Shown: positions 28,152-59,462 of the stretch, piece after piece | Layout: every line of letters starts with the position of its first letter | Position numbering within the stretch: position 1 is the first letter of the stretch | Source of the DNA: a virus | Strand: one strand, 5' to 3' | Virus record (IMG/VR): IMGVR_UViG_3300014494_000005 | Span: 186,001-250,000 of that record | Length of the DNA: 64,000 nt | The notes under the pieces: generated by a model | The model's input: only the letters and a program-made list of their open reading frames with translations | Told to the model about the DNA's origin: nothing | The model's database searches: none | Position numbers and translations under genes: made by a program

Positions 28152-30080
28152 TTATAATAAGAAATTATTAATTGCTTTTATTATTTTACCTTCTTCTTCC
28201 TTAATAAGAATACCATTTTTGTTTATATAATTCTCACCAAAACTTTTATCACCACGTTTTTCTGGAAATAAATATGCACCCGGAGTACTTGGAGTTGAAA
28301 CTAAATCGAAACCAATTAATTCAAAATCTCCTTGAACTAAATTTTCACCATTTATTTCTTTAAGTGTTCCAACACCACGACTTGAAATTCCTAATTTAAT
28401 TTTGTTTTGCAAATACAAAACAATTTTATCACCAATTACAGAAACAACACCATATCTAATATATCCGGGACTAACAATTATTTTTAATTGACCATATAAC
28501 ACATTTTCTTGTTCACCAGTACCCCACCACATTTTAGTAATCATATGAGAAATATTTTGAAGTGATATGATACTGGAATTACCTGTCCAATGTGATTTAC
28601 CATTTACTTTAATTAAAAAATTTCCATTTTTTACTCTTACACAAGCAATATTATCATCGAAATTTATTTCACTTATTTTTATACTTCTTTTATCTAAATA
28701 AATATGTTTTGTTTTTGAAATATTTAAATTATATTGTAAATGACTATTTTCTAATTTAATTAATCTTTTTTTATTTGCGTCTTCAGTAATATACTCAACA
28801 GTACCATCAGAAAGAATCATTTCCCTTTTTAATATTTTATGGTCAATAATTTCTCTATCTTTTGGTTGATAAGTAGTAATATTACCACAGCCACCAATCT
28901 TAATTAAAACTTCATGTAAATCTTCAATTAATTGTTTTGATATCGAAAAAACTGATTCTTTACGTATTTTATTGATAGTTTTATTTTTTATTAATCTTCC
29001 ATCACCTAATTCAAACCATCTAAACAATATTTTCAATAAATCGGAAGATGCTTGTTTTAATTCAATAGGAATATATTTATTAAATGAATCACCTAAAACA
29101 TATAAATAATCATATAATCTAGCATCATTTATGTGATATTGACATTTACCATCATTATGTTCATCCTTCCAATATTTAAAAGGTAATTTTTTTAATAAAT
29201 TTTCGATTATTATTTTCTTTTCAATATTCTTTTGTGTTATAACAACATCGTATCCCTTTAATTTATATTGATTTGATTTAGTTCCACCACAATGACCTTC
29301 AGCTAAATATATTCCTATAAATGCAAACCAATCTTCAGATTTAATATTTATTGATTTTGTGTATTTTTCGATTAAGTCATGTTTATAGTTAAAACTTAAA
29401 GTATTTTTATTTACACCGTTTAAAGTAAAATATTCCAAATATTGACCATTCCATTTAGCAGTTTTTAATATTTTATATTTACCTGACGATAAAATATTAT
29501 TTTTATTATCATAAATATCTTTAGCATAATAATATTCTTGTTTACGTTTAGAATCTTCTAATAAAAATCTATGATTTGCAGTAACCGTTAAATCAATATT
29601 AGTTCCCAAAAATTTATACATTTTGCCTTCATATGGCATATATATTTTTTTATCGATTTTTTGAATCTCAATTTGATTAGTATCTATATTAAGTGTTAAA
29701 ATTTCTTCATTGTCTGAAATATCTTTAAACCATTTCCAACCACTCTTTGTAAGTATTTGAGAATTAGATGCTTGCACACAATCGGGATGGTCTGCTTCTG
29801 ATACTGCACTATTTGTATTAACTAATTCCTGATATATTTTAACTTGTGGTATTAAAACATCTTTGGGATAAATTCGACCATTTTTGTTTTTAACACCCCA
29901 TTTTTGTAATATACAATTAACTAAAACTGGTTCATTAGGTTTAAGTTCAAAATTTTCATTAAGAATATCTTTATTAATTTCAGAACTAATATATCCTGCG
30001 TCATGTTCTATAAGAATCCCAAATCCTGTTTGACCTGCTTGTATTATTTTACTTTCGTTTAAAGGAAATATCATACTCAT
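28152..30080 (-). CDS. Prohead protease (T4 gp21-like) containing an intein
   Basis: A 642-residue precursor. Residues 1-100 and 502-642 form an S78-family prohead protease of 241 residues: the catalytic His is H98 in SEADHPD and the catalytic Ser lies in GISSRGVGT (about residue 566). It would mature the scaffold, the shell and internal proteins by cutting after L/I-x-E. Residues 101-501 are an intein inserted two residues after the catalytic His, so the protease can only be active after splicing. Late motif upstream. Confidence 0.9.
   Translation of the reverse strand: MSMIFPLNESKIIQAGQTGFGILIEHDAGYISSEINKDILNENFELKPNEPVLVNCILQKWGVKNKNGRIYPKDVLIPQVKIYQELVNTNSAVSEADHPDCVQASNSQILTKSGWKWFKDISDNEEILTLNIDTNQIEIQKIDKKIYMPYEGKMYKFLGTNIDLTVTANHRFLLEDSKRKQEYYYAKDIYDNKNNILSSGKYKILKTAKWNGQYLEYFTLNGVNKNTLSFNYKHDLIEKYTKSINIKSEDWFAFIGIYLAEGHCGGTKSNQYKLKGYDVVITQKNIEKKIIIENLLKKLPFKYWKDEHNDGKCQYHINDARLYDYLYVLGDSFNKYIPIELKQASSDLLKILFRWFELGDGRLIKNKTINKIRKESVFSISKQLIEDLHEVLIKIGGCGNITTYQPKDREIIDHKILKREMILSDGTVEYITEDANKKRLIKLENSHLQYNLNISKTKHIYLDKRSIKISEINFDDNIACVRVKNGNFLIKVNGKSHWTGNSSIISLQNISHMITKMWWGTGEQENVLYGQLKIIVSPGYIRYGVVSVIGDKIVLYLQNKIKLGISSRGVGTLKEINGENLVQGDFELIGFDLVSTPSTPGAYLFPEKRGDKSFGENYINKNGILIKEEEGKIIKAINNFLL
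28578..29780 (-). mobile_element. Intein with LAGLIDADG-type endonuclease in the prohead protease
   Basis: A 401-residue intein. It begins with Cys (CVQASNSQILTKSG, block A). It has block B with the Thr and His of DLTVTANHRF, two LAGLIDADG-like helices (WFAFIGIYLAEGH and ILFRWFELGDGR), and ends FLIKVNGKSHWTGN followed by Ser. The penultimate residue is Gly instead of the usual His, a known but uncommon variation; the terminal Asn and the +1 Ser are present. The mature junction would read HPD-SSIIS. Confidence 0.85.
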
Positions 30081-39208: not shown

Positions 39209-40516
39209 CTATATTTTCTTTTTATCTTTAATACCATCAAATAACCATGCATTTGCTCCATATGGATTTAATGGTGATACACTATTAGGTGAAATCATTG
39301 GTCTGTTTTTTATATCAATTTTTCTTCCCATTTCATTTATATCATTATTGGTTATTATGGCATTAAGCATATGTTCAGTTATTCCTTTACTTTGTTTATA
39401 TCTCGCCATATCAAAATTAAGAACATACAAACCAATTGATAATCCCATAATTGAATCATCATGAAATGTACGTTTATGGTCTGCAACCCTATTACCAGCA
39501 ACAGTTACAAATGTTTTTAATTCTTCTAATAATCTAATTGACCTAATAATAACATCTTCTAAATGAATAGCTCTTTGTAATTCCAAAATAACTGATGCAC
39601 GATTATTACCTATAAAAAATCCAGGAATTAAATCAACATTAATTACTGTACCATCTGGCATTATTTTTTGACCTTTTTTTATATATCCTTGTAATCTATC
39701 TCTACTTGGTTTATGTGTTACTTCAGCATAATGAACATGTTCATTACCATAACCAAATTCTAATAATTTTTCAACACTTTGTACACCATAACCACCAGTA
39801 ATATCAACAACACAATATGCATTATTATATTTTCTACCATATTGATATGCTATTTCTGCAAGCATTTGTGGTGTAACTTTACCATAATATTCAGCAACTT
39901 GTTCAACTTTATGCCTTTTTATTTTAATTTTTTTTGTTTTACCACCTTTTTCTATTATTTTTTCTTCAATAGTTTCTATGGTTTTAAGTATATTTATTGT
40001 TGAATTATCTTCTCCATGACCCGGAGAGGCATCTAATGCCATAATATATTCTTCACCTGCTTCAGGGTCTTTCCAAATCCACATATTACCATCAACATAT
40101 TCTTGACGAATTGGAATTAGTTTTTCATTTTCTTCAATTCGTTTTAAATATTCTTTAGCAATAAAATTATCACCAGACCCCAAAAAAGAACAATTATGAT
40201 TTAAGATTCCATTTGCAAAATATTCACACCCTTCGCTATCAACAATATCATAAAATTCACAATCATTTATCGGTTCAACAGATTTAACATAAAAATCTCC
40301 TTCTGTTGTTGTTAAATATGCAACATTTGGTATTAATGATTTGGCATACATATCAACATTATTTGTAATGAATATATGGTCTTCACTAACAATAATTGAC
40401 ATATCATTTTCTAAAGTTATTTTTAATCCATTTTTTTTGTTCGATTTTTCCACTCCCAAAAAATCCACAAAATTTCCTGAATTATTTAATATTTCATATT
40501 CAGTATTAATTAACAT
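39209..40516 (-). CDS. Terminase large subunit, C-terminal half, with C-terminal split intein (IntC)
   Basis: A 435-residue protein. Residues 1-108 are the C-terminal part of a split intein: block B is IIVSEDHIF, and blocks F and G are EFYDIVDSEGCEYFANGILNHN, followed by the +1 Cys (CSFLGSGDN). Residues 109-435 are the TerL nuclease domain (IMALDASPGHGEDNS; VVDITGGYGVQSVEKL; FHDDSIMGLSIGL). Its start overlaps the preceding endonuclease stop by seven bases. Trans-splicing with 41682-42878 would rebuild the complete packaging motor subunit. Confidence 0.92.
   Translation of the reverse strand: MLINTEYEILNNSGNFVDFLGVEKSNKKNGLKITLENDMSIIVSEDHIFITNNVDMYAKSLIPNVAYLTTTEGDFYVKSVEPINDCEFYDIVDSEGCEYFANGILNHNCSFLGSGDNFIAKEYLKRIEENEKLIPIRQEYVDGNMWIWKDPEAGEEYIMALDASPGHGEDNSTINILKTIETIEEKIIEKGGKTKKIKIKRHKVEQVAEYYGKVTPQMLAEIAYQYGRKYNNAYCVVDITGGYGVQSVEKLLEFGYGNEHVHYAEVTHKPSRDRLQGYIKKGQKIMPDGTVINVDLIPGFFIGNNRASVILELQRAIHLEDVIIRSIRLLEELKTFVTVAGNRVADHKRTFHDDSIMGLSIGLYVLNFDMARYKQSKGITEHMLNAIITNNDINEMGRKIDIKNRPMISPNSVSPLNPYGANAWLFDGIKDKKKI
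40193..40516 (-). mobile_element. IntC half of the terminase split intein (108 residues)
   Basis: Starts at the ATG at 40516 and ends with His-Asn before Cys. It is long for a C-terminal intein piece (about 35 is usual), because the break lies early in the intein, right after block A, as in the atypically split AceL-TerL intein. Confidence 0.85.
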
Positions 40517-41670
40517 TGTAAAAATTTAACACATTTATTAATGATTTCATTATTTTTATTATTTCTATTATATTCTTCTGAAGTTACAAACATAATTTCA
40601 AATCCCATATCTTTCAATATGGAATATCTAATATCATCAATATCATTCGAATGCCAATAAGTACCGTTATATTCAATAACTTTATTGTTTTGTTTAAAAT
40701 CTAACATCATTACTGTTTTATCATAATTAAATTTTTCTGGTATTCTTAATACAAATTCTTTATTTAATTCGGTAAAATATATATTATTCTTATTATCTAT
40801 ATTATCATATATATTCCAAAACAATTCTTGAGAAATTTTACTATATCTATTTGCTTTTAATATTGATAATTTATTCATTTTAATATTTACATGTTCCTTA
40901 TATTTTATAATTCCTAATTCAGTACCAAATTTACGTTGAAACCATTCAATACTATTTGTTTTATTTATTTTAACATTTTCTTTTCGTTCATTATAATAAT
41001 AATTCCAATTATCACAATATGTTTTTTTAAACCAATTAATTGATGGATATTTGGGTTCACATTTTCCACAAATAATACTAAATTCACCCTTATTTATTCT
41101 CCAAAATTTTAATACATTATGCTTGTGACAATAAATATCAATATTATTAATTAATATATATAATCTCATTGATAATTTATTTAAATTTTTATTAAGTAAA
41201 TTCAAATGAGATGTATAGTATAATAAACTTAAATATAATTTTTTATCATCTCTTAATAATTTTCTATTTCCAGATTTTCCATAATAAATTTTATATTTAT
41301 TTTTTAATAAATTTATTGTTTCTATTTTAGAATACAATTCAACAATTTTCGATAATTCATCATTACATAAATCCCATTGTTTTTTTGCTGCATTTAAATT
41401 ATATTTCTTAAAATCGCATAATTTTGAGTCATAAATCATTAATTTGTTATCAATCTTAATTTTGTTAATGTCACCATTATATTTTTGTAAAAATAAAATT
41501 TTTGCTGGTAATTTTTTGTTTGACGGATATATTTGAATTTCCTTAGTATATTCGTTAATATATTTTAATAGATTTGGAAACAGCTTATTAAAATGTGCAA
41601 CACCGCCCATAATACTAAAATTTTTTATATTTACATTATTTAAATTTTTAATTAATATTTCTTTTTTCAT
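40510..41670 (-). CDS. Free-standing Vsr-like (EDxHD) homing endonuclease between the terminase halves
   Basis: A 386-residue protein. The C-terminal catalytic part has MLDFKQNNKVIEYNGTYWHS followed by GFEIMFVTSEEYN, similar to the EFNGLYWH nuclease of 3100-4974 and to the Vsr-like endonucleases that lie between halves of 'fractured' phage genes. A CKCEPKYPSINWFKKTY-type zinc element (ICGKCEPK) is near residue 220. Own AGTATTTATA motif upstream. Its insertion between the two intein parts is the likely origin of the split. Confidence 0.8.
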   Translation of the reverse strand: MKKEILIKNLNNVNIKNFSIMGGVAHFNKLFPNLLKYINEYTKEIQIYPSNKKLPAKILFLQKYNGDINKIKIDNKLMIYDSKLCDFKKYNLNAAKKQWDLCNDELSKIVELYSKIETINLLKNKYKIYYGKSGNRKLLRDDKKLYLSLLYYTSHLNLLNKNLNKLSMRLYILINNIDIYCHKHNVLKFWRINKGEFSIICGKCEPKYPSINWFKKTYCDNWNYYYNERKENVKINKTNSIEWFQRKFGTELGIIKYKEHVNIKMNKLSILKANRYSKISQELFWNIYDNIDNKNNIYFTELNKEFVLRIPEKFNYDKTVMMLDFKQNNKVIEYNGTYWHSNDIDDIRYSILKDMGFEIMFVTSEEYNRNNKNNEIINKCVKFLQC

Positions 41671-41681
41671 ATTATATTTTA

Positions 41682-42878
41682 TTATAAATACTCACAAGAA
41701 TTATTTTGTTCATTAAGTTTATCATAAAATTTAAAAATTTCTAATGTTTCAATAATACCAGTTTTTTTATTTTTAATTGTAATTAATGAATCTTTTCCAA
41801 CGCACATAAGTTCCTGCGCTATCTTACGCATATCACCATTGGCATTACGAATTTGTTCTTCAAACCAAGGACTACTTGCTTCCCAGCCATCGTCCATCAT
41901 TTTAATTCTCTGTTCCTTACTCCAATTTGTATCAATTATTTTATTTTCAGTGGTTTTACCTTTATTTTTTAGCCAAACCAATTCTTTATTATAACGAGGG
42001 TCATTATACCACCATAATTCAACCGCTTTAAAATTATTTTTTCCTTTTCTTGCAGTATTAAATGTTTGATAAAAAACAGCATCAAGACCAGAAGGTGTAC
42101 TTACCATAATAGCATTACCACCAGTTTGTAATGTTGGCTGTGCTGAAGTCCAGAATTTATCACCCTTTTCTGCCCATGCTGTTTCATCCCAAAACAATAA
42201 AGTTGGTGTCATACCACGTAATGTTTTAGATGCAAATGCTCCTAATTTTGAATCATTATCATAATATTTCAATTTCTGTGTATCTTTTAAATTTTTTTCT
42301 GTATCTCTACCAGTTTTTGGTCTAAGCCATACAGGACAATTTTCAATAAAATCAACAACATCACTCATTAATTCATCACGTGCGGTTTCAAGTTTATCTG
42401 CAACAATAGCTACTTGTCTATTACGATTAAACATTACATACCAAGCAATATATGCACAAGTTGTTGTTGAAATACCTGCTTGACGATATTTATTAGCAAT
42501 AACAAAACGGTTTTCTAAATATGATTGAATTAATTCTTTTTGAAATTCAAATAATTTGAAAGGAACAATAAGACCAGCCTTACCTTGAGTTTGGTCAAAA
42601 ATTGTCAAATAAGTTTCAATAAAATAAATTGGATTTGAAGCACAACGAATAATTTCATCTTCTTGTTCATGAAGAGTTAATTCACTTGCTTTTTTTATTA
42701 GACCTGATTTTGCAACAATAATGGGTTCAATATTTCCAGATTTTTTTCGAAGTTCTTTTGCTAATTTTCTTTGTTCTTCTTTTTCTATTTCCTTTTGAGC
42801 ATCAAATGGAATGACTGGAATATGGTCAGGAAATTGTTCTTCTTCTTTATCTTTTAATTTGTCAATATCTTCAGACAT
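41682..42878 (-). CDS. Terminase large subunit, N-terminal half, with N-terminal split intein (IntN)
   Basis: A 398-residue protein. Residues 1-358 are the ATPase domain of a gp17-like DNA packaging motor: adenine/Walker A region FVIANKYRQAGISTTT, Walker B PTLLFWDETAW and coupling motif MVSTPSG. Residues 359-398 are a 40-residue intein N-part beginning CVGKDSLITI, after which the frame stops. The nuclease domain is encoded separately at 39209-40516. Late motif upstream of the start. Confidence 0.93.
   Translation of the reverse strand: MSEDIDKLKDKEEEQFPDHIPVIPFDAQKEIEKEEQRKLAKELRKKSGNIEPIIVAKSGLIKKASELTLHEQEDEIIRCASNPIYFIETYLTIFDQTQGKAGLIVPFKLFEFQKELIQSYLENRFVIANKYRQAGISTTTCAYIAWYVMFNRNRQVAIVADKLETARDELMSDVVDFIENCPVWLRPKTGRDTEKNLKDTQKLKYYDNDSKLGAFASKTLRGMTPTLLFWDETAWAEKGDKFWTSAQPTLQTGGNAIMVSTPSGLDAVFYQTFNTARKGKNNFKAVELWWYNDPRYNKELVWLKNKGKTTENKIIDTNWSKEQRIKMMDDGWEASSPWFEEQIRNANGDMRKIAQELMCVGKDSLITIKNKKTGIIETLEIFKFYDKLNEQNNSCEYL
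41685..41804 (-). mobile_element. IntN half of the terminase split intein (40 residues)
   Basis: It contains only block A (Cys1, then GKDSLITIKNK and GIIETLEIFKFYDKL). The first residue, Cys359 of the protein, is the splice nucleophile. Confidence 0.85.
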
Positions 42879-42894
42879 TTATAAATATTTATAA

Positions 42895-43058
42895 TAAATA
42901 CTATCCTTGATTAAAACCGCAAAGCTCGGTACATTCCTAAATGATGTATCGAACTTCGAAATCTTTTCTTCCTAATATGGTAAGATAGACAAAAAAACCA
43001 AAAACGCATAAATACGTTTTCTTAACTGTTTTACCTCATGGGTAATCAGATATTATAA
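42895..43058 (-). other. Non-coding interval with hairpins before the terminase gene
   Basis: No reading frame is convincing here. A 9-bp stem (TCGGTACAT/ATGTATCGA) lies around 42925-42952, a short TTACC-GGGTAA hairpin near 43033-43048, and AAAACG/CGTTTT with a T-rich tail near 43004-43022 could terminate the gene 43062-43550. The interval has more G+C than its surroundings, so a structured leader or small RNA is possible. Confidence 0.35.
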
Positions 43059-52306: not shown

Positions 52307-52316
52307 TTATATATAT

Positions 52317-52401
52317 CGGGGTGTAGGTCTGTAGTTGGTAGCAGTCCTGCCTTGGAAGCAGGTGGAGAAATCCCTCGCACGTTCGAACCGTGTCACCCCG
52401 A
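52317..52401 (+). tRNA. tRNA-Pro (anticodon TGG)
   Basis: Acceptor CGGGGTG/CACCCCG, anticodon arm CCTGC-CTTGGAA-GCAGG, T-arm GCACG-TTCGAAC-CGTGT. The variable region is 14 bases with a possible GGA/TCC stem, unusual for tRNA-Pro. No CCA is encoded. It reads CCA and other CCN codons, as used in leader 1. Confidence 0.8.
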
Positions 52402-52511
52402 AGTGATTGATGTTAAATTACTTGCACGTAGTAATCACTGCATAACCAAAAGGTTAACTAAAAATTTAGCAAAGTTCTTTGAAATACCTAATAATAATAT
52501 ATAATTTATAT

Positions 52512-52583
52512 GGGATGATTGGTGTAGCGGTAGCATGCCAGATTGTGGTTCTGTCGGGGAGGTTTCAAATACCTCATCACCCC
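52512..52583 (+). tRNA. tRNA-His (anticodon GTG)
   Basis: Anticodon loop TTGTGGT. The acceptor has eight positions including the extra 5' G opposite C73, the hallmark of tRNA-His, with one A-C mismatch. T-arm GAGGT-TTCAAAT-ACCTC. No encoded CCA. Confidence 0.85.
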
Positions 52584-52642
52584 CAAATTCTCTAGTGATG
52601 TAATTAATATATTGCTGGTTTGAATATATTGAAACAATAAAT

Positions 52643-52729
52643 TGTTCTGTGATGAAATTGGCTAAACATGTCAGACTTTGACTCTGATGCTCTTTAGTGA
52701 GTTTGTAAGTTCGAATCTTACCAGAACAG
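52643..52729 (+). tRNA. tRNA-Gln (anticodon TTG), long variable arm
   Basis: Acceptor TGTTCTG/CAGAACA (7 bp), anticodon arm TCAGA-CTTTGAC-TCTGA, T-arm GTAAG-TTCGAAT-CTTAC. The variable region is about 17 bases with a CTC/GAG stem and the D-arm looks leucine-like, so the body is class II although the anticodon is that of Gln. Leader 1's Gln codons support the Gln reading. Confidence 0.75.
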
Positions 52730-52778
52730 CAATATTAATTTTTTTAATTATCTTTGTTAAAATTTTAAATTAATTATT

Positions 52779-53732
52779 ATGTCATATAATTTATTTCTTG
52801 ATGACTTCCGCAGTCCTATCGATTCTTTTTATTATTTAGGGAATCCAATATATAATATTCTTGATTGGAAAATTGTACGAAATTATGATGAATTTGTGAA
52901 AACGATTCAAGAAAATGGTATTCCAGAAACTATTAGTTTTGACCATGATTTGGAAAATTCTGAAGAGTGGATGGATATTATTGGATATGAAGGAATTTAC
53001 ATGGTTTCAAATTTTGGTCGTATTTTAAGAACAAAAAAATCAAAAGGTACAACAGGTAATAATATTTTAACTCCATTAAAAAACATATCTGGATTATATG
53101 TAACATTATATAATTGCGGTAAAAATATACACAAAAAAATTCATAGATTAGTTTTAGAATCATTTATGGGTATTAATAATGAAAAATCACAAGTTAATCA
53201 TATTGATGGAAATAGATGGAATAATCATATTAATAATTTAGAGTGGTGTACATCATCTGAAAATATATGGCATTCACATAATGTATTATATAGAGATTTT
53301 TCTGCATATGGTGAAAACCATAAAAATAGTATGACAGTATCTCAATATGATATAAATAATAATCTAATTAATATTTATGGTTCAGTTAATGAAGCAGGAA
53401 GGCAATTAAATATTAGTTTTTCGAACATTGCAAAATGTGCTAGAGGTGAAAGAAAAATTGCTGGTGGATTTATTTGGAAATATGAAAATCTCAAAGTAAC
53501 AATAAATACAAAAATTTCACACATTGAATATAAAGATTATGCTAAGAATTTCTTTATACCTAAATATGAAGAAAAAACTGGTTATCATTGTGCTAAATGG
53601 TTAATAGATTATTGCATTGACAATAAATTAGAATTACCAAAAACAATTTTAATACACTCAATGAATCCAGTTGGAAGTCGAAATATTAAATCATTATTTG
53701 ATAGTTATTTCAAATCACTTAATTTATCTTAA
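52779..53732 (+). CDS. Receiver-like (cREC) domain protein interrupted in frame by an HNH endonuclease
   Basis: A 317-residue protein. Residues 1-66 (NLFLDDFRSPID ... RNYDEFVKTI ... ISFDHDLENS) and about 250-317 (EKTGYHCAKWLIDYC ... ILIHSMNPVGSRNI) together make the small receiver-like domain known as cyclic-phosphate processing receiver (cREC). Between them sits a complete homing endonuclease: a NUMOD4 block (EEWMDIIGYEGIYMVSNFGR), an HNH block (QVNHIDGNRWNNHINNLEWC) and a NUMOD1-like helix-turn-helix. No intein splice residues or intron features are visible, so the endonuclease may be tolerated as an inserted domain. Confidence 0.8.
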   Translation: MSYNLFLDDFRSPIDSFYYLGNPIYNILDWKIVRNYDEFVKTIQENGIPETISFDHDLENSEEWMDIIGYEGIYMVSNFGRILRTKKSKGTTGNNILTPLKNISGLYVTLYNCGKNIHKKIHRLVLESFMGINNEKSQVNHIDGNRWNNHINNLEWCTSSENIWHSHNVLYRDFSAYGENHKNSMTVSQYDINNNLINIYGSVNEAGRQLNISFSNIAKCARGERKIAGGFIWKYENLKVTINTKISHIEYKDYAKNFFIPKYEEKTGYHCAKWLIDYCIDNKLELPKTILIHSMNPVGSRNIKSLFDSYFKSLNLS

Positions 53733-53735
53733 TTT

Positions 53736-54152
53736 TTATTTAACCCAAAATTTTCCTAATAATGTAATAATTGTGATTAGTATTGATATTCCCGCAACAA
53801 TGTATGCAATCATAGCATTTCCACCTGCTTTTATATTTTCAGATTTTTCGACTTTAATTGTAAGTGCATCAATTTTATCATTAGCATTTTTTAACAATAC
53901 TTCTGTCTCAATACGTGGCATTAATGTTCTCGACTGGTCACCAAGTTGTGCACGAAATTCATTAACACATTCAAAACGTTTTTCTGTTGCAACCTCTGCC
54001 TTATTAACAGCTAATTCCATTGCTTGATACCTTTGAGTTACACGTTCGTCTCTTTCAGCAAGCAATATTTTATAATGTTCATATTGATTTTTTAATACAA
54101 CATCATAATGCTCTTTAAGAGCTTCAAGCGTCCAAATTGTGTTATTTTCCAT
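53736..54152 (-). CDS. Coiled-coil protein with C-terminal membrane anchor
   Basis: A 138-residue protein: WTLEALKEHYDVVLKN start, long coiled coil (ERDERVTQRYQAMELAVNKA, KRFECVNEFRAQL), and a single C-terminal transmembrane helix (AYIVAGISILITIITLLG). This widespread phage family is often found near lysis genes, but its function is unproven. It is convergent with the cREC gene. Confidence 0.65.
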   Translation of the reverse strand: MENNTIWTLEALKEHYDVVLKNQYEHYKILLAERDERVTQRYQAMELAVNKAEVATEKRFECVNEFRAQLGDQSRTLMPRIETEVLLKNANDKIDALTIKVEKSENIKAGGNAMIAYIVAGISILITIITLLGKFWVK

Positions 54153-54250
54153 TAATTTATTAGTGTTAGATATTTATTAGCCATTTAATGTTAATAAATA
54201 CTTTTTAGAACGTCTAAAAATATTGTATATAAAAAATAATTTAAAAAAAG

Positions 54251-54281
54251 TTTGTATATATTGTAACATTTTATATCTTTG
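54251..54281 (+). promoter_or_regulatory. Bacteroidetes-type promoter of tRNA leader 2
   Basis: TTTG (54251-54254), 19 bases, TATCTTTG (54274-54281): again a full match to TTTG-N19-TAnnTTTG. Confidence 0.8.
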
Positions 54282-54321
54282 CAACGTATTTAGAATAAAA
54301 GAAACTATTTTTAATTTTAAA

Positions 54322-54414
54322 ATGATGAAAAAAGTACTCGACATATTGGTATCAGAGATGGCAGTTGTCCTATTATGGGCAGATGCAGAAGATACATTAT
54401 ATTCAGTCGGGTAA
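54322..54414 (+). CDS. Leader peptide 2 of the large tRNA operon attenuator
   Basis: A 30-codon frame starting ATG-ATG. Residues 12-24 read EMAVVLLWADAED, all amino acids of downstream tRNAs (Glu, Met, Ala, Val, Leu, Trp, Asp). Overall 22 of 30 residues belong to that set. At the codon level it uses GAT/GAC, GAA, GAG, GTA, CTC, CTA, TTA, TTG, TGG and GCA, matching tRNAs with anticodons GTC, TTC, CTC, TAC, AAG, TAG, TAA, CAA, CCA and TGC in the cluster. Its last codons (CAGTCGGG, 54404-54411) pair with the terminator's 5' arm. Confidence 0.8.
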   Translation: MMKKVLDILVSEMAVVLLWADAEDTLYSVG

Positions 54415-54486
54415 TATTTATTACAAATAACACCTCCTTTCTTAAATGAAAAATCCCGACTGCTAAAATGGTCGGGATTTTTTTTT
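54404..54486 (+). promoter_or_regulatory. Attenuator 2: antiterminator/terminator pair before tRNA-Asp
   Basis: Terminator: AAATCCCGAC (54451-54460) and GTCGGGATTT (54471-54480), a perfect 10-bp stem followed by a T run. Alternative: CAGTCGGG (54404-54411) with CCCGACTG (54455-54462), 8 bp. The two cannot coexist. Between them lies CACCTCCTTTCT (54431-54442), identical to the usual 3' tail of 16S rRNA. Confidence 0.75.
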
Positions 54487-54490
54487 AGAA

Positions 54491-54520
54491 TTTGTAACAA
54501 ATAAAATTTTTCTTTGTATA
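54491..54520 (+). promoter_or_regulatory. Promoter, TTTGTAACA-N22-TATA class, before tRNA-Asp
   Basis: TTTGTAACA at 54491-54499 and TATA at 54517-54520, spacing 22. It lies downstream of attenuator 2, so the tRNAs could also be expressed without passing the attenuator. The following TTCTTTGACATGTTGGAA resembles sequences near Bacteroidetes rRNA operons. Confidence 0.5.
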
Positions 54521-54545
54521 CTGTTCTTTGACATGTTGGAAATTC

Positions 54546-54615
54546 GTTCTCGTAGTATAATGGTTAGTATGTATCACTGTCTATGATAAGGAGGGGTTCG
54601 AATCCCACGGGGACG
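54546..54615 (+). tRNA. tRNA-Asp (anticodon GTC)
   Basis: Acceptor GTTCTCG/CGGGGAC with G-T pairs, discriminator G as in tRNA-Asp, D-arm GTATAATGGTTAGTAT, anticodon arm TATCA-CTGTCTA-TGATA. The T-stem is weak (3-4 bp). Confidence 0.85.
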
Positions 54616-54686
54616 GCAATGATTATTAATGTGTTATAATAATTATCTGTTATATTAAATTATATTAAAAATGAAATAATTAATTT

Positions 54687-54770
54687 GCTGCATTATACAA
54701 GTGGTTAAAGTGGCTTGCCCTTCAAGCAAGTGCCGAAAGGCTTCGCAGGATTCGAATTCCTCATGCAGTA
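54687..54770 (+). tRNA. tRNA-Glu (anticodon TTC), class II-like body
   Basis: Acceptor GCTGCAT/ATGCAGT, anticodon arm CTTGC-CCTTCAA-GCAAG (C at position 33), long variable arm with a GCC-GAAA-GGC hairpin, T-arm with TTCGAAT. The body looks serine-like, while the anticodon reads GAA. GAA in leader 2 supports the Glu assignment, but charging cannot be predicted. Confidence 0.65.
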
Positions 54771-54797
54771 CTGAAATATAAATTTAAAATTTAAATT

Positions 54798-55187
54798 ATG
54801 AAAAATTTGTATATTAATGCAACTCACAGTACACCCGCAGTTTTTTTTAATATTAATAAAGGTATTCTTACAATAACAGGAAAATCATTTCCTGAGAATT
54901 CCTCAATGTTTTTTGATGATATTGATAAAGCATTAGATGAATTTATTAAAGAACATTCTAATGTTGATTTAACAATTACTTGTGAATTTGAATATATTAA
55001 TTCATTATCAAATAAAGCAGTTTTTAATATATTAGAAAAAGCAGCAAAATCTCTTAATAATGTTATAGTTGTTTGGAAATATGAAGAAAACGATGAAGAT
55101 ATGAAAGAGCAGGGAGAATTTTTTGAAACATCTTTTAAAACTAAAATTCATTTTCATTATAAACATTTTTTAATACAACCAGAATGA
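54798..55187 (+). CDS. SiaC-like regulatory protein (DUF1987)
   Basis: A 129-residue protein. KNLYINATHSTPAVFFNINK, then GILTITGKSFPENSSMFFDD, match the N-terminal core of the SiaC/DUF1987 family ('TPev.f....g.l.i.GrS.PENs..Fy'). In Pseudomonas, SiaC is a phosphoprotein partner that controls a diguanylate cyclase. It sits between two tRNA-Glu genes, 10 bases before the second. A phage role in host signalling is inference. Confidence 0.75.
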   Translation: MKNLYINATHSTPAVFFNINKGILTITGKSFPENSSMFFDDIDKALDEFIKEHSNVDLTITCEFEYINSLSNKAVFNILEKAAKSLNNVIVVWKYEENDEDMKEQGEFFETSFKTKIHFHYKHFLIQPE

Positions 55188-55192
55188 TAAAT

Positions 55193-55265
55193 GCTCGGTT
55201 CGTCTAATGGTTAGGACAAAAGATTCTCATTCTTTTAAATATGTTTTCGATTAACATACCGAGTA
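55193..55265 (+). tRNA. tRNA-Glu (anticodon CTC)
   Basis: Acceptor GCTCGGT/ACCGAGT, typical Glu D-arm GTCTAATGGTTAGGAC, anticodon arm AAAGA-TTCTCAT-TCTTT, T-arm ATGTT-TTCGATT-AACAT, discriminator A. Reads GAG. Confidence 0.88.
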
Positions 55266-55343
55266 CAGAAATAAATATGATGTTGGAAATACTAACATTA
55301 TCATATAAAATTTGATTTAATGCTGGCTTTTATCAACAAATAT

Positions 55344-55418
55344 ATTCCCTTAACTCAGATGGGTCAGAGTGTTTGCCTTACAAGCAAAATGTCGTAGGTT
55401 CGAAGCCTACAGGGAATA
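55344..55418 (+). tRNA. tRNA-Val (anticodon TAC)
   Basis: Acceptor ATTCCCT/AGGGAAT, D-stem ACTC/GAGT, anticodon arm TTTGC-CTTACAA-GCAAA, T-arm GTAGG-TTCGAAG-CCTAC, discriminator A. Confidence 0.92.
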
Positions 55419-55503
55419 CAAAAGATTGTAGTGCCAAATACAATCATAATATCGCCTTAATTACCGATATTTAATATTTATCGGTTAAAAAGGTGATACC
55501 TTT

Positions 55504-55591
55504 CTCTCAGTGTTGTAACTGGTAGCCAAGCTGGTTTAAGAAACCAGTGCGAAATAATAGTAGCGTGTCGGTTCGAGTCCGACTTGAGAGA
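55504..55591 (+). tRNA. tRNA-Leu (anticodon AAG)
   Basis: Acceptor CTCTCAG/TTGAGAG, anticodon arm CTGGT-TTAAGAA-ACCAG, a 19-base class II variable arm and T-arm GTCGG-TTCGAGT-CCGAC. A34 is rare in bacterial tRNA-Leu; if converted to inosine it would read CTT, CTC and CTA. Confidence 0.82.
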
Positions 55592-55599
55592 CAATAAAC

Positions 55600-55674
55600 G
55601 TGAATGTAGCCAAATGGTTAATAGGCAATCGATTTAGACTCGAAAATTTGCTGGTTCGACTCCAGTCATTCACA
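55600..55674 (+). tRNA. tRNA-Leu (anticodon TAG), short variable loop
   Basis: Acceptor GTGAATG/CATTCAC, D-arm GCC-GGC, anticodon loop TTTAGAC on a TCGA/TCGA stem, T-arm GCTGG-TTCGACT-CCAGT. The anticodon reads CTA (Leu), but the variable loop is short (class I), unlike normal tRNA-Leu. CTA occurs in leader 2. Confidence 0.7.
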
Positions 55675-55740
55675 CAAAGATATTTTTTAAAAAACAATAA
55701 TCTTTCCTAATATTTCATGTATTTATATTAAATATAATAT

Positions 55741-56469
55741 ATGAAATATACAAAAGAATTTTTAGAACCAATTGTTCTTAAAAGCAAAGCAATTAGTGAA
55801 GTATTACGTTATTTAAAATTAAATGCTAATGGTGGTAATCATGCACATATTTCAAAAACCATAAAAAAATATAATATTGATACATCACATTTTCTTGGAC
55901 AAAGTTGGAATAGAGGTAAATCGCCACGAAATAGACATACCATAGAAAGTTTCATTAAACTTGTTTTAAAATTAAATGGTATGGGATGGCAAAGTCATCA
56001 AATAAAATTAAAATTATTTGAATTAAATTTAAAAGAAAGAAAATGTGGAATTTGTGGACAAAATGAAATATGGAATAATAATAAACTTGGTTTAGAGTTA
56101 GACCATATTAATGGAATACACAATGATAATAGATTAGAAAATTTAAGAATTTTATGTCCAAATTGTCATTCACAAATGCCAACACAAGGTGTTAGAAATA
56201 TTCATAATGGAAAAATAATTAACATTAAAGTTCATAAAGAAAAAATAATAAAAAATAAAATAATTAATATTTGTAATTGTGGTAAAAAAATAAAAAATAA
56301 TTCTAAAACATGTGTTAATTGCTATTCATTAAAACAAAGAAAAGTTAATAGACCATCATTTGAAACACTTCAAGAAGAAGTTAAAACATTAGGATATACT
56401 GGAACTGGAAGAAAATATGGTGTGAGTGATAATACGATAAGAAAATGGATTAAATTTTACACGAAATAA
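55741..56469 (+). CDS. HNH homing endonuclease
   Basis: A 242-residue protein. The HNH core is KCGICGQNEIWNN then LELDHINGIHNDNRLENLRI and LCPNCHSQMPT, giving a two-Cys-pair zinc site and the catalytic His of DHINGI. A second zinc-knuckle (CNCGKK...CVNC) and a C-terminal helix-turn-helix (GRKYGVSDNTIRKWIK) should bind the target. It lies between tRNA genes, with GTATTTATA 13 bases before its ATG, so it has its own late-type promoter. Confidence 0.9.
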   Translation: MKYTKEFLEPIVLKSKAISEVLRYLKLNANGGNHAHISKTIKKYNIDTSHFLGQSWNRGKSPRNRHTIESFIKLVLKLNGMGWQSHQIKLKLFELNLKERKCGICGQNEIWNNNKLGLELDHINGIHNDNRLENLRILCPNCHSQMPTQGVRNIHNGKIINIKVHKEKIIKNKIINICNCGKKIKNNSKTCVNCYSLKQRKVNRPSFETLQEEVKTLGYTGTGRKYGVSDNTIRKWIKFYTK

Positions 56470-56472
56470 AAT

Positions 56473-56548
56473 GGGGTATGGGACTGCTAGGGTTGGTCAT
56501 CTCGTCTGCACCGAGAAAATCAGGAGGATTCGAATTCCTCATGCTCCA
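56473..56548 (+). tRNA. tRNA-Ala (anticodon TGC)
   Basis: Acceptor GGGGTAT/ATGCTCC contains a G3-T70 wobble pair, the identity signal of tRNA-Ala. Anticodon arm TCTCG-TCTGCAC-CGAGA (C at position 33), T-arm GAGGA-TTCGAAT-TCCTC. Confidence 0.88.
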
Positions 56549-56587
56549 CATTATCAAATAGTTATATAGATAATCACAATAAAATAT

Positions 56588-56661
56588 GGCACAGTACTCC
56601 AATTGGTAGAGAGAAACGGCTTAAACCCGTTAAAGTGTGAATTCGAATTTCACTTGTGCTA
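56588..56661 (+). tRNA. tRNA with anticodon TAA (Leu), class I body
   Basis: Acceptor GGCACAG/TTGTGCT with terminal wobble pairs, D-stem CTC/GAG, anticodon arm AACGG-CTTAAAC-CCGTT, variable loop of only five bases, T-arm GTGAA-TTCGAAT-TTCAC. The anticodon reads TTA, but the short variable loop is atypical for Leu; a second, canonical tRNA-Leu(TAA) lies at 58962. Confidence 0.7.
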
Positions 56662-56683
56662 CAAAATAAATTAATTATAATAT

Positions 56684-56755
56684 ACGTCTGTCGTCTAATG
56701 GTTAAGATAACGGCTTCCAACCCCGTGGATGAGGTTTCGATTACTTCCAGACGTG
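56684..56755 (+). tRNA. tRNA-Trp (anticodon CCA)
   Basis: Acceptor ACGTCTG/CAGACGT with A1-T72 and discriminator G, as in bacterial tRNA-Trp. Anticodon arm ACGGC-TTCCAAC-CCCGT has a C-C mismatch next to the loop; a shifted fold would give TCC (Gly), but the acceptor identity elements and the Trp codon of leader 2 favour Trp. T-arm GAGGT-TTCGATT-ACTTC. Confidence 0.7.
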
Positions 56756-56782
56756 CTAAAATAAAAAATAAATATTATATTA

Positions 56783-56814
56783 TTTGCATATATTTATATA
56801 ATAAACTAAATTTG
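56783..56814 (+). promoter_or_regulatory. Bacteroidetes-type promoter
   Basis: TTTG (56783-56786), 20 bases, TAAATTTG (56807-56814), eight bases before the ATG of the next gene. Confidence 0.6.
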
Positions 56815-56821
56815 TCAAATT

Positions 56822-57550
56822 ATGTTAATAATAAATTACAATAAAAAAGATTATTACGATGGTGTTGTTGGTACGATGGGTATCGATAAAACACTTGTTT
56901 ATGACCGTAAAATAATTGAGGTTGAAGAAAAAAAAATTCCATCAATATTTCAAAGAAAGGGATTTTCTTGGAAAAAAAGTAAAGATTCACCTTTTTTAAA
57001 TATTGAAAATCATACAATAAAAAATGAACAACATAAAAATTATCAAAATTGTAGTTCTTTTATTATTGGATTTTGTGGAAAACTATATATTGGTTGGAAA
57101 TTATATAGCGAAAACAGAAAAGTTTATCCAGAAAAACTTACAACTACAATTACATATGATTTTGATTTAATAAAAACAATTATTGATAATAAAGGTTGGT
57201 ATGGAAACCTTGAAGAGCAGTATAATTATATTAAAAATTATAATTCACTTCAATTATTTAGAGATTTTAAAGCACCTGTTTTTATTTATGATAGTGATTA
57301 TAATAGAATAAATATTGGTCATTATCATAAACGTAATGAAAAACTTTTTATTAATCCAATTTTAAGCGATTATCATTTTTATAAAATATTTGATAGTTTT
57401 CAAGCATTTCAAGAAATAAGTATGTTTATGGGTGGTGTGCTTGGTAAAGGCGAAAAAGAAATTATTGAAGTGGCTGATAAATATAAAATTACTCAACATG
57501 GTTTTGATTATAAATGGAGTTTTAGAAAAAAATCTGAAAAGAATAAATGA
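56822..57550 (+). CDS. Conserved phage protein of unknown function
   Basis: A 242-residue protein. The start YYDGVVGTMGIDKTLVYDR and the end AFQEISMFMGGVLGKGEKEI ... ITQHGFDYKWSFRK are a pattern that I know from many large phages (hypothetical proteins of this kind), without assigned function. It begins a three-gene overlapping operon leading to the tmRNA. Confidence 0.7.
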   Translation: MLIINYNKKDYYDGVVGTMGIDKTLVYDRKIIEVEEKKIPSIFQRKGFSWKKSKDSPFLNIENHTIKNEQHKNYQNCSSFIIGFCGKLYIGWKLYSENRKVYPEKLTTTITYDFDLIKTIIDNKGWYGNLEEQYNYIKNYNSLQLFRDFKAPVFIYDSDYNRINIGHYHKRNEKLFINPILSDYHFYKIFDSFQAFQEISMFMGGVLGKGEKEIIEVADKYKITQHGFDYKWSFRKKSEKNK

Positions 57551-57813
57551 AACAAGAATTGCATAAAATATTTATAATTCCTGCTCGATTTATTAAACAA
57601 ACTAAAGATAATAAATATGTTATTCGATGTCTAATTGAAAAAAATATTACTGAAGACCGTATATTTGATGATAATTCACTTAAAGGATTAATAAATCCTA
57701 AGTATTTATTAATCGGAATAATGACAGGAGTTGGATATATGCAAATAAATTTTGTTGATGCTAATGATTATGAAAAAATGTTTAATGTAAAATGGAAAAT
57801 TTTAGTAAAATAA
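57547..57813 (+). CDS. Hypothetical protein
   Basis: An 88-residue basic-hydrophobic protein overlapping its neighbours by 4 and 22 bases. No domain recognised. Confidence 0.6.
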   Translation: MKQELHKIFIIPARFIKQTKDNKYVIRCLIEKNITEDRIFDDNSLKGLINPKYLLIGIMTGVGYMQINFVDANDYEKMFNVKWKILVK

Positions 57814-57986
57814 GCGATGAAATAATATCACAACTTAAATCTATATGTTATAGTGGTGATTTATCTGATATTGGTAATGAAATTGGTATTGTAATTGCTA
57901 AATATTTTGATAAAGATAATACTGTTGATGATTTCATTCATGGTTTAAAACATGGAATATCATTAACTGATGGAACACATGGTTAA
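57792..57986 (+). CDS. Small hypothetical protein
   Basis: A 64-residue acidic helical protein (NFSKISDEIISQLKSICYSG ... DDFIHGLKHGISLTDGTHG). Ends 23 bases before the tmRNA. Confidence 0.55.
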   Translation: MENFSKISDEIISQLKSICYSGDLSDIGNEIGIVIAKYFDKDNTVDDFIHGLKHGISLTDGTHG

Positions 57987-58009
57987 TATAATAAGTTCTT
58001 TAAAATAAT

Positions 58010-58372
58010 GGGGATGAATGGATTTGACTGTATGTAGAAAAATGATGTAAGCAAGTAGTAGTTGAATCGGACTACTTTTAAAAAGGTTCAAAACAATAAA
58101 TGCAGAAGACATTATGTCTATTCCTACTTCCTTGACAAAAGGAAATAGCGTATTTGTAAAGAGTGCTGAACTTGCAATTGCGTAATAGGAAAAAAATAAA
58201 CAGCAAAAAACTTCCAAGTCAGAAGGGAAGTAAAAACAATTCTGGACAGTTTTGTAGTTGTTCTGGAAAAATACAATTAACATTTTGCTGATTTAGGAAA
58301 ATCAAATAAACTTGTAGAAAACTTATTAATCACATTGCAACACCGGGGAATCGATGCCCCGCATCTCCACCA
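58010..58372 (+). ncRNA. ssrA: tmRNA (trans-translation RNA), CCA encoded
   Basis: A 363-base transfer-messenger RNA that would rescue stalled ribosomes. The 5' end GGGGATG pairs with CATCTCC near the 3' end, followed by ACCA; the T-arm is CCGGGG-AATCGAT-CCCCG-like. The tag reading frame most likely resumes at 58150 (GTA after AAATAGC) and runs 11 codons, VFVKSAELAIA, to TAA TAG at 58183-58188. The tag ends in LAIA instead of the usual LAA. Confidence 0.88.
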
Positions 58373-58376
58373 AATA

Positions 58377-58425
58377 TTTTTCATCTCCACAGTATTTATA
58401 TTAAAATATTGATGGAGATGAAAAA
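58377..58425. repeat. 13-bp inverted repeat around the start of the endonuclease gene
   Basis: TTTTTCATCTCCA (58377-58389) and TGGAGATGAAAAA (58413-58425) are perfect reverse complements; AGTATTTATA lies between them and the right arm covers the first codons. CATCTCCAC also occurs at the tmRNA 3' end (58362-58370). Confidence 0.8.
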
Positions 58426-58960
58426 TTTAAAAAAAAGAAAAACTAAATTAATTAAATGCGATAATTGTGGAAATGATTTTGAAAAATCGATATCCGAAAT
58501 AAAAAGAAATAAAAATCATTTTTGTTCATTAAGATGTTCAGCAATCCATCGTAATGATATCAATCGAAAAAATTTTGAAGGATATATAGGAAATCCAAAA
58601 TTTTTAATTGCAAATAATCATAAAGATGAATATACAGGTTTTCGTGATTTTATTAGAAGAGCAAAACAAAGAAATAAATTAGGGAATTTAACATTAATTG
58701 ATTTAAAAGAACAATGGCAAAAACAAAATGGAATTTGTCCTTATACTGGAATACAATTAGAATTGCCAAATTATTCTAAAACAAAAAAATTTTCAATACA
58801 AGAAGCAGCATCTTTAGATAGAATAAATTCAAATAAACCATATGAAAAAGATAATATTGTTTTTGTAAGTACACCAATTAATTATATGAAAAATACGATG
58901 ACAGAAGAAGAAACAATTGCATTTTGTAAAAAAATTGCATTATTTTGGAATAATAAATAA
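58412..58960 (+). CDS. HNH-type homing endonuclease
   Basis: A 182-residue endonuclease. N-terminal zinc site CDNCGNDF...CSLRCSAIH, then a helical part (GFRDFIRRAKQRNK) and the nuclease core NGICPYTGI ... ASLDRINSNKPYEKDNIVFVS ... INYMKN, a form seen in free-standing phage HNH proteins. The ATG at 58412 follows AGTATTTATA by 11 bases. It stands directly behind the tmRNA gene. Confidence 0.85.
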   Translation: MEMKNLKKRKTKLIKCDNCGNDFEKSISEIKRNKNHFCSLRCSAIHRNDINRKNFEGYIGNPKFLIANNHKDEYTGFRDFIRRAKQRNKLGNLTLIDLKEQWQKQNGICPYTGIQLELPNYSKTKKFSIQEAASLDRINSNKPYEKDNIVFVSTPINYMKNTMTEEETIAFCKKIALFWNNK

Positions 58961-58961
58961 T

Positions 58962-59048
58962 GGCGAAGTGATGAAATAGGTAGTACATGCAGGTCTTAAA
59001 AACCTGTGAACAGTAATGTTCGTGTGGGTTCGATTCCCATCTTCGCTA
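58962..59048 (+). tRNA. tRNA-Leu (anticodon TAA)
   Basis: Acceptor GGCGAAG/CTTCGCT, leucine-like D-arm ATGAAATAGGTAGTACAT, anticodon arm CAGGT-CTTAAAA-ACCTG, class II variable arm with GAACA/TGTTC, T-arm GTGGG-TTCGATT-CCCAT, discriminator A. Confidence 0.92.
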
Positions 59049-59092
59049 CGAATAAATTAATTAAAGTATTTATATAAAAACTTATAATAACA

Positions 59093-59257
59093 ATGAATAT
59101 ATTAATTATAAATCAATCAACACCAATTAACTATCCAATAATAATTGTACCTGTTGGTTGTCAATTTAATATACCTAATAGAATAATGTGTAGTGGTGGT
59201 TTTCTTGTTTATAATAAACCATCTGAAAAAATATTAATTAATTATGGCAAATATTAG
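59093..59257 (+). CDS. Small hypothetical protein
   Basis: A 54-residue protein with a hydrophobic centre (NYPIIIVPVGCQFNIPN) and a strong late motif (AGTATTTATATA, from 59065) 20 bases before the ATG. Function unknown. Overlaps the next small gene by 14 bases. Confidence 0.55.
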   Translation: MNILIINQSTPINYPIIIVPVGCQFNIPNRIMCSGGFLVYNKPSEKILINYGKY

Positions 59258-59360
59258 AAAACCACATCCAAAAGAAGATGATTGTGGATGTGGAAAATCA
59301 GTTAAAATAACTGAAAGAAAAAAAATTGAATATAGACGAATTATAAAGAAAAGAGGATAA
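59244..59360 (+). CDS. Small basic protein
   Basis: A 38-residue Lys/Arg-rich peptide with CGCG (DDCGCGKS). It ends one base before tRNA-Leu(CAA). Coupled to the previous frame by overlap. Confidence 0.45.
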   Translation: MANIRKPHPKEDDCGCGKSVKITERKKIEYRRIIKKRG

Positions 59361-59443
59361 CTCCTTGTGATGAAATTGGTAGCACGTGCTCGCCTCAAAA
59401 GCGAGTGCCTTCGGGCGTGTCGGTTCGACTCCGACCAAGGAGA
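59361..59443 (+). tRNA. tRNA-Leu (anticodon CAA)
   Basis: Acceptor CTCCTTG/CAAGGAG perfect, D-arm ATGAAATTGGTAGCACGT, anticodon arm CTCGC-CTCAAAA-GCGAG, class II variable arm (GCC-TTCG-GGC), T-arm GTCGG-TTCGACT-CCGAC. Confidence 0.95.
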
Positions 59444-59462
59444 CAAATAGAAGGGAAATTTT

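What the first reader, a model, noticed from the sequence alone, without database searches (positions are those of the whole stretch)
39209..42878. Fractured terminase gene with an atypically split intein and an endonuclease between the halves
Seen: TerL ATPase half ending in a 40-residue IntN (block A only), an EDxHD/Vsr-like endonuclease gene, then a 108-residue IntC (blocks B, F, G, ending HN|C) fused to the TerL nuclease half. Known: the AceL-TerL split intein from a metagenome has the same early split, and fractured genes with intervening Vsr-like endonucleases were described for other phage proteins. Here the complete arrangement is seen in its genome context, with a late-type promoter motif before the endonuclease and the N-half genes.
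Basis: partly seen in the sequence, partly recalled or inferred. Interest (0 to 1): 0.75.

Follow-up and report, generated by a model that had tools for sequence, protein, structure and literature searches.

The report
Split terminase gene with mobile intein
A large phage has its DNA-packaging motor gene broken in two by a DNA-cutting selfish gene, with each half carrying part of a self-splicing tag that should rejoin the protein; the arrangement is of a known kind, but about a hundred related phages show it being gained, spreading and decaying at one fixed site.

Summary
On the minus strand lie TerL-N + IntN (40 aa), a 386-aa endonuclease, and IntC (108 aa, ending HN|C) + TerL-C. The endonuclease and IntC frames overlap by 7 nt. 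The same arrangement, identical in sequence, is in contigs from several other samples, so it is not an assembly error. It is a fractured gene of the type described by Dassa et al. 2009, with an AceL/GOS-type early-split TerL intein and an EDxHD (I-Bth0305I-like) homing endonuclease. That makes it a new member of a known kind. What adds interest is the allele series at this exact TerL site: empty genes, continuous mini-inteins, split inteins with a separate endonuclease, split inteins with the endonuclease fused to IntN (or to IntC in cultured Vibrio phage Va1), and split inteins whose endonuclease is deleted or absent. Two phages share the whole module with one mismatch while flanking terL differs by about 20%, the footprint of recent homing. 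In another pair the endonuclease is less diverged than both intein halves, so it may move by itself. Splicing and cleavage were not tested. The 'late promoter' is a real gene-upstream motif (GTATTTATA), but not the T4 late consensus.

The parts
41805..42878 (-). TerL N-extein, residues 1-358 (ATPase half, T4 gp17-like)
   Evidence: Pfam Terminase_6N and PHROG terminase large subunit; aligns with unsplit terL of relatives up to residue 358
41682..41804 (-). IntN, 40 residues, Cys1, block A only, plus stop codon
   Evidence: tail NNSCEYL overlaps the motif before the endonuclease gene
41683..41691 (-). GTATTTATA motif ~20 nt upstream of the endonuclease start, inside the IntN 3' end
   Evidence: 23 of 55 ORFs in the window have TATTTATA upstream, expected 1.3; GTATTTAT invariant in all same-clade alleles with an endonuclease, GTTTTTAT in both decayed ones
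42894..42901 (-). GTATTTAT motif upstream of the TerL-N gene
40510..41670 (-). Free-standing EDxHD-family homing endonuclease gene, 386 aa; E305, D324, H340 invariant, D345 nearly so
   Evidence: alignment of 12 homologues; HMM hit to I-Bth0305I 3r3p E 0.006; Foldseek of predicted structure to 3r3p, probability 0.99, E 0.098
40510..40516 (-). ATGTTAA overlap: IntC start codon inside the end of the endonuclease frame (translational coupling inferred)
   Evidence: overlap of 4-10 nt in all same-clade alleles with an endonuclease, kept in the L006 remnant
40193..40516 (-). IntC, 108 residues, blocks B, F, G, ending HN
39209..40192 (-). TerL C-extein (nuclease half), Cys+1 CSFLGSGDNF
   Evidence: unsplit homologues continue into it without a gap

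Best explanation
A mobile fractured gene. The terL gene of this ~349-kb virus record carries, at the junction between the ATPase and nuclease halves, a class-1 mini-intein that is broken after its first strand pair and helix by an inserted EDxHD homing-endonuclease gene with its own promoter-like motif. TerL-N/IntN, the endonuclease and IntC/TerL-C are made as separate proteins, IntC probably by translation coupled to the end of the endonuclease frame. IntN and IntC assemble and trans-splice (Cys1, then Cys+1, then Asn cyclisation), giving intact TerL. The endonuclease would cut terL alleles without the insert in co-infecting relatives, and repair would copy the whole module in. Shown from sequence: anatomy, intact splicing and catalytic residues, purifying selection, empty alleles with the exact junction, and a recent whole-module transfer between phages. 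Inferred: splicing, cleavage, coupling, promoter function.
For: Anatomy and intact motifs. Endonuclease family by HMM and fold. Empty alleles with zero-length junction. Patchy presence: at least 15 changes on a 68-row TerL tree. L021/L027: IntN-endonuclease-IntC (about 1.61 kb) with one mismatch while flanking terL dS is about 1.0-1.2; last upstream mismatch 16 nt before and first downstream mismatch 18 nt after the module. NG86 dN/dS well under 1 for IntN (0.2-0.5), endonuclease (0.1-0.4), IntC (0.04-0.24). Near-identical occupied/empty pair L138/L139 (99.75% upstream) for the AceL-like relative. TerL-C has no start codon of its own at the junction, so an intact TerL needs splicing.
Against: No experiment. 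The only intein model fold, of a continuous relative, had low confidence (mean pLDDT 42), so the fold rests on sequence similarity to gp41-1. Target DNA at the junction is not more conserved than the rest of terL, so the endonuclease's target is not marked out by sequence. Collapsed or chimeric contigs could in principle imitate the L021/L027 pattern, although the two come from different samples.
Confidence: 0.9

Rival explanations
1. The endonuclease is itself the mobile unit, nested in the intein: it can move between already split inteins without the intein halves, and the intein halves are then mostly inherited or transferred separately.
For: L016/L096: endonuclease 91% DNA identity (dS 0.41) but IntN, IntC and TerL 75-80% (dS 0.84-1.97), with the change lying near the ends of the endonuclease gene. 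The motif and spacer belong to the endonuclease side: in distant relatives the motif lies in non-coding DNA after a shorter IntN. Different endonuclease types (EDxHD, GIY-YIG) occupy the same split point.
Against: One clear pair only; L021/L027 shows the whole module moving together. A slower-evolving endonuclease in that lineage or recombination of other origin could mimic it.
Confidence: 0.45
2. The module is a decaying remnant: the endonuclease no longer homes and the split gene merely persists because trans-splicing is now required.
For: Endonuclease-less or remnant split inteins are frequent at this site: L006 (46-aa remnant), L182 (truncated), L136, L224/L232, L226, L266, L289; at least 6 presence/absence changes.
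Against: In the window the endonuclease is full length with all catalytic residues and the motif intact; dN/dS 0.31 against its nearest HEN-tree relative L026.
Confidence: 0.1
3. The two TerL halves work as separate, unspliced subunits (genes in pieces) and the intein pieces are vestigial.
For: A phage ribonucleotide reductase split by a homing endonuclease works as two peptides (case cited in PMC10448857).
Against: Cys1, block B His, HN and Cys+1 are kept in all same-clade alleles; IntC dN/dS 0.04-0.24, also low in endonuclease-less alleles; continuous inteins of the same family occur in intact terL genes.
Confidence: 0.03

Closest known systems
Fractured genes (Dassa et al. 2009, Nucleic Acids Res 37:2560; paper not held, known here from memory and citing papers)
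   Same: Enzyme gene broken by a split intein with a free-standing endonuclease gene, often EDxHD/Vsr-like, between the halves; control elements brought with the endonuclease
   Different: terL as host gene, early split site; alleles here also include endonuclease fused to IntN or IntC, deleted, and unsplit
AceL-TerL and GOS-TerL atypically split inteins (PMC11766414, PMC13014065)
   Same: Same enzyme; early split with short IntN (25 and 37 aa; here 40) and ~104-115 aa IntC; Cys+1; on recalled AceL sequence the same TerL junction; Ser1 variants like GOS also seen (L136, L150)
   Different: Remote in sequence; EDxHD endonuclease in between, while the AceL-like relative L138 has a GIY-YIG one
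AceL NrdHF split intein (PMC7891396)
   Same: Fractured-gene organisation with intervening endonuclease (GIY-YIG)
   Different: Class 3 intein, canonical late split, ribonucleotide reductase
I-Bth0305I (PDB 3r3p)
   Same: EDxHD catalytic domain
   Different: Intron-encoded; the N-terminal ~300 residues here have no recognised relative of known structure

Membership tests
Fractured gene with split intein | Essential enzyme gene broken in two, each half fused to one intein part | tested here: met
Fractured gene with split intein | Free-standing endonuclease gene between the halves | tested here: met
   separate ORF with stop codon between IntN and the endonuclease
Fractured gene with split intein | Trans-splicing restores the protein | not testable with these tools
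   residues intact only
EDxHD (Vsr-like) homing endonucleases | Conserved E, D, xH, D residues and fold of I-Bth0305I | tested here: met
   E305, D324, H340 invariant and D345 nearly so in 12 homologues; HMM E 0.006, Foldseek probability 0.99 but E only 0.098
EDxHD (Vsr-like) homing endonucleases | Cuts intein-less alleles and promotes homing | tested here: inconclusive
   recent module transfer fits homing; cleavage not testable
AceL/GOS-type atypically split TerL inteins | Split after the first helix (S2), short IntN with block A only | tested here: met
   IntN 40 aa ends after the LEIFKFYDKL helix region; IntC holds blocks B, F, G
AceL/GOS-type atypically split TerL inteins | Same insertion site in TerL | tested here: met
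Class 1 intein | Cys1, block B His, terminal His-Asn, Cys+1 | tested here: met
   all present in every same-clade allele aligned
T4-type late promoter | TATAAATA on the coding strand upstream of genes | tested here: not met
   2 of 55 ORFs; the enriched motif is GTATTTATA

The most novel reading that the evidence does not exclude
At one TerL codon junction a two-layer mobile element is caught in all its states. The intein homes into terL, an endonuclease gene independently invades and splits the intein, the split persists after the endonuclease is lost, and the halves can fuse again into a continuous intein, so intein splitting is reversible and driven by endonuclease turnover.
Probability: 0.4. 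Interest if true: 0.7.

Novelty: new member of a known kind. Interest (0 to 1): 0.5.

Why it matters
How split inteins arise has been a long-standing question, with fractured genes proposed as the missing link. This TerL site offers a dense natural series (empty, continuous, split with separate or fused endonuclease, split without endonuclease) in related phages, two of the split cases in cultured Vibrio phages. The order of events, the endonuclease's target and the need for coupling can now be tested. The short IntN fragments are also candidates for protein-labelling tools.

Tried and rejected
Assembly error: rejected, identical arrangement in other samples. Group I intron or other RNA element: no Rfam match in four loci including the module. 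T4 late promoter: rejected. Homing site as an unusually conserved DNA stretch: not supported. Polarity continuous-to-split or split-to-continuous inside the clade: tree places continuous inteins among split ones, but AU tests do not reject the split ones as one clade (p 0.109 and 0.278), so unresolved; across the wider family the continuous ones are not one clade (p 2e-5). Intein fold by AlphaFold2 on a continuous relative: too low confidence to use. Endonuclease in GTDB genomes: none confirmed as relatives. Weak PDB hits of the single endonuclease sequence to unrelated proteins were taken as chance.

Full report
Observation. TerL-N (358 residues, Terminase_6N) runs into a 40-residue IntN beginning at Cys1. 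After its stop codon and 11 nt comes a 386-aa ORF, and its frame overlaps by 7 nt (ATGTTAA) the start of a 435-aa ORF made of a 108-residue IntC ending HN|C and the TerL nuclease half. The portal gene gp20 follows. The window is bases 186001-250000 of a 348,923-base virus record. Identical full copies exist in other samples.

Identity of the parts. IntC resembles the solved gp41-1 phage intein (6qaz, E 7e-7). The endonuclease family (12 rows) keeps E305, D324, H340 and nearly D345. Its profile's best PDB hit is I-Bth0305I, the EDxHD type enzyme (E 0.006), and its predicted structure matches the same entry with probability 0.99 but a modest E-value of 0.098. The N-terminal ~300 residues have no recognised structural relative.

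Alleles at the same site. Mapping TerL-N, IntN, endonuclease, IntC and TerL-C on IMG/VR loci gave insert lengths of 0 (about 45 distinct empty alleles, in frame), 429 or 441 nt (continuous mini-inteins L183, L184/L185, L186-L190, one open frame through terL), 590 nt (L006), 812 nt (L182) and 1606-1629 nt (complete modules). In L006 the endonuclease is reduced to a 46-aa ORF joining what look like its first and last ~23 residues in frame, still overlapping the IntC start. In about ten alleles there is no stop between IntN and the endonuclease, so the two share one frame. In cultured Vibrio phage Va1 the endonuclease is instead fused to IntC, and in Vibrio phage VP-1 the IntN is fused to a GIY-YIG domain. 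A pattern scan for HN|C-x-FLGSG added distant TerL lineages, several with split inteins and no endonuclease found between the halves (L224, L226, L232, L266, L289; also L136) and two continuous ones (L242, L252).

Mobility. On a TerL tree intein presence changes at least 15 times among 68 rows; the window's allele pairs with the empty L003. L021 and L027, from different samples, share the module with one mismatch while terL on either side is about 80% identical with dS near 1; the identical tract ends within 20 nt of the intein on both sides. L138 and L139 are an occupied/empty pair 99.75% identical upstream of the site and 96% downstream, for an AceL-like split intein with a GIY-YIG gene. L016 and L096 share an endonuclease at 91% while the intein halves and terL are at 75-80%, which suggests separate movement of the endonuclease; one pair is not proof.

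Selection. Crude pairwise NG86 ratios are well below 1 for IntN, IntC and endonuclease; IntC stays constrained (0.17-0.24) where the endonuclease has decayed. Several dS values are near saturation, so only the direction is used.

Control motif. TATTTATA precedes 23 of 55 ORFs in the window on the coding strand (1.3 expected; TATAAATA 2 of 55). It precedes TerL-N and the endonuclease but not IntC-TerL-C, so the latter probably depends on upstream transcripts and coupling. In the clade GTATTTAT is invariant where an endonuclease is present and reads GTTTTTAT in both decayed alleles (which may share ancestry); in distant relatives a similar motif lies in non-coding DNA after a shorter IntN. This fits control elements brought by the endonuclease, with the IntN tail having read into them.

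Order of events. Continuous inteins are not one clade in the wider family (AU p 2e-5) and endonuclease presence changes at least 6 times among split forms. Inside the window's clade the continuous forms fall among split ones, but tests do not reject the reverse (p 0.109 and 0.278).

Known work. Fractured genes with EDxHD endonucleases (Dassa 2009, cited in PMC3229294, PMC10448857 and PMC12350094; the paper itself is not held), AceL-TerL and GOS-TerL (PMC11766414, PMC13014065) and AceL NrdHF (PMC7891396) cover the kind. The window locus is a new member. The comparative series may be new, but I could not check subscription literature.

Noticed in passing
window 28152-30080 (-): Prohead protease gene (Peptidase_S77, T4 gp21-like) carries a continuous intein of about 400 residues with a likely endonuclease domain, between HPD|C and GN|S.
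   Followed up: partly
L138:985-5070 (also L137): A terL in three pieces: split intein with EDxHD endonuclease at the Walker A site and a second split intein with GIY-YIG endonuclease at the AceL site; L139 lacks only the second.
   Followed up: partly
L136:3100-3560: Split intein with Ser1 (as in GOS-TerL), IntN and IntC ORFs only a few nt apart and no endonuclease.
   Followed up: partly
L086, L182, L183, L184; L101: A second insertion near TerL residue 260 in several intein-bearing alleles; in L086 and L182 it reads as a continuous intein with a LAGLIDADG-like endonuclease; L101 terL seems to have three further continuous inteins besides the split one.
   Followed up: no
L088:3753-7780: terL split after Walker A (GK|C) with an EDxHD endonuclease, plus a continuous mini-intein near Walker B.
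   Followed up: no
G000:C1:183148-183309 (+), just outside the window: Weak second EDxHD-like match (E 2e-4) in a 573-codon open frame.
   Followed up: no
window, upstream of ORFs on both strands: GTATTTATA motif typically about 20-30 nt before start codons, probably a promoter or processing signal of this phage.
   Followed up: partly
window 52316-59444 (+): Twelve tRNA genes in a cluster.
   Followed up: no
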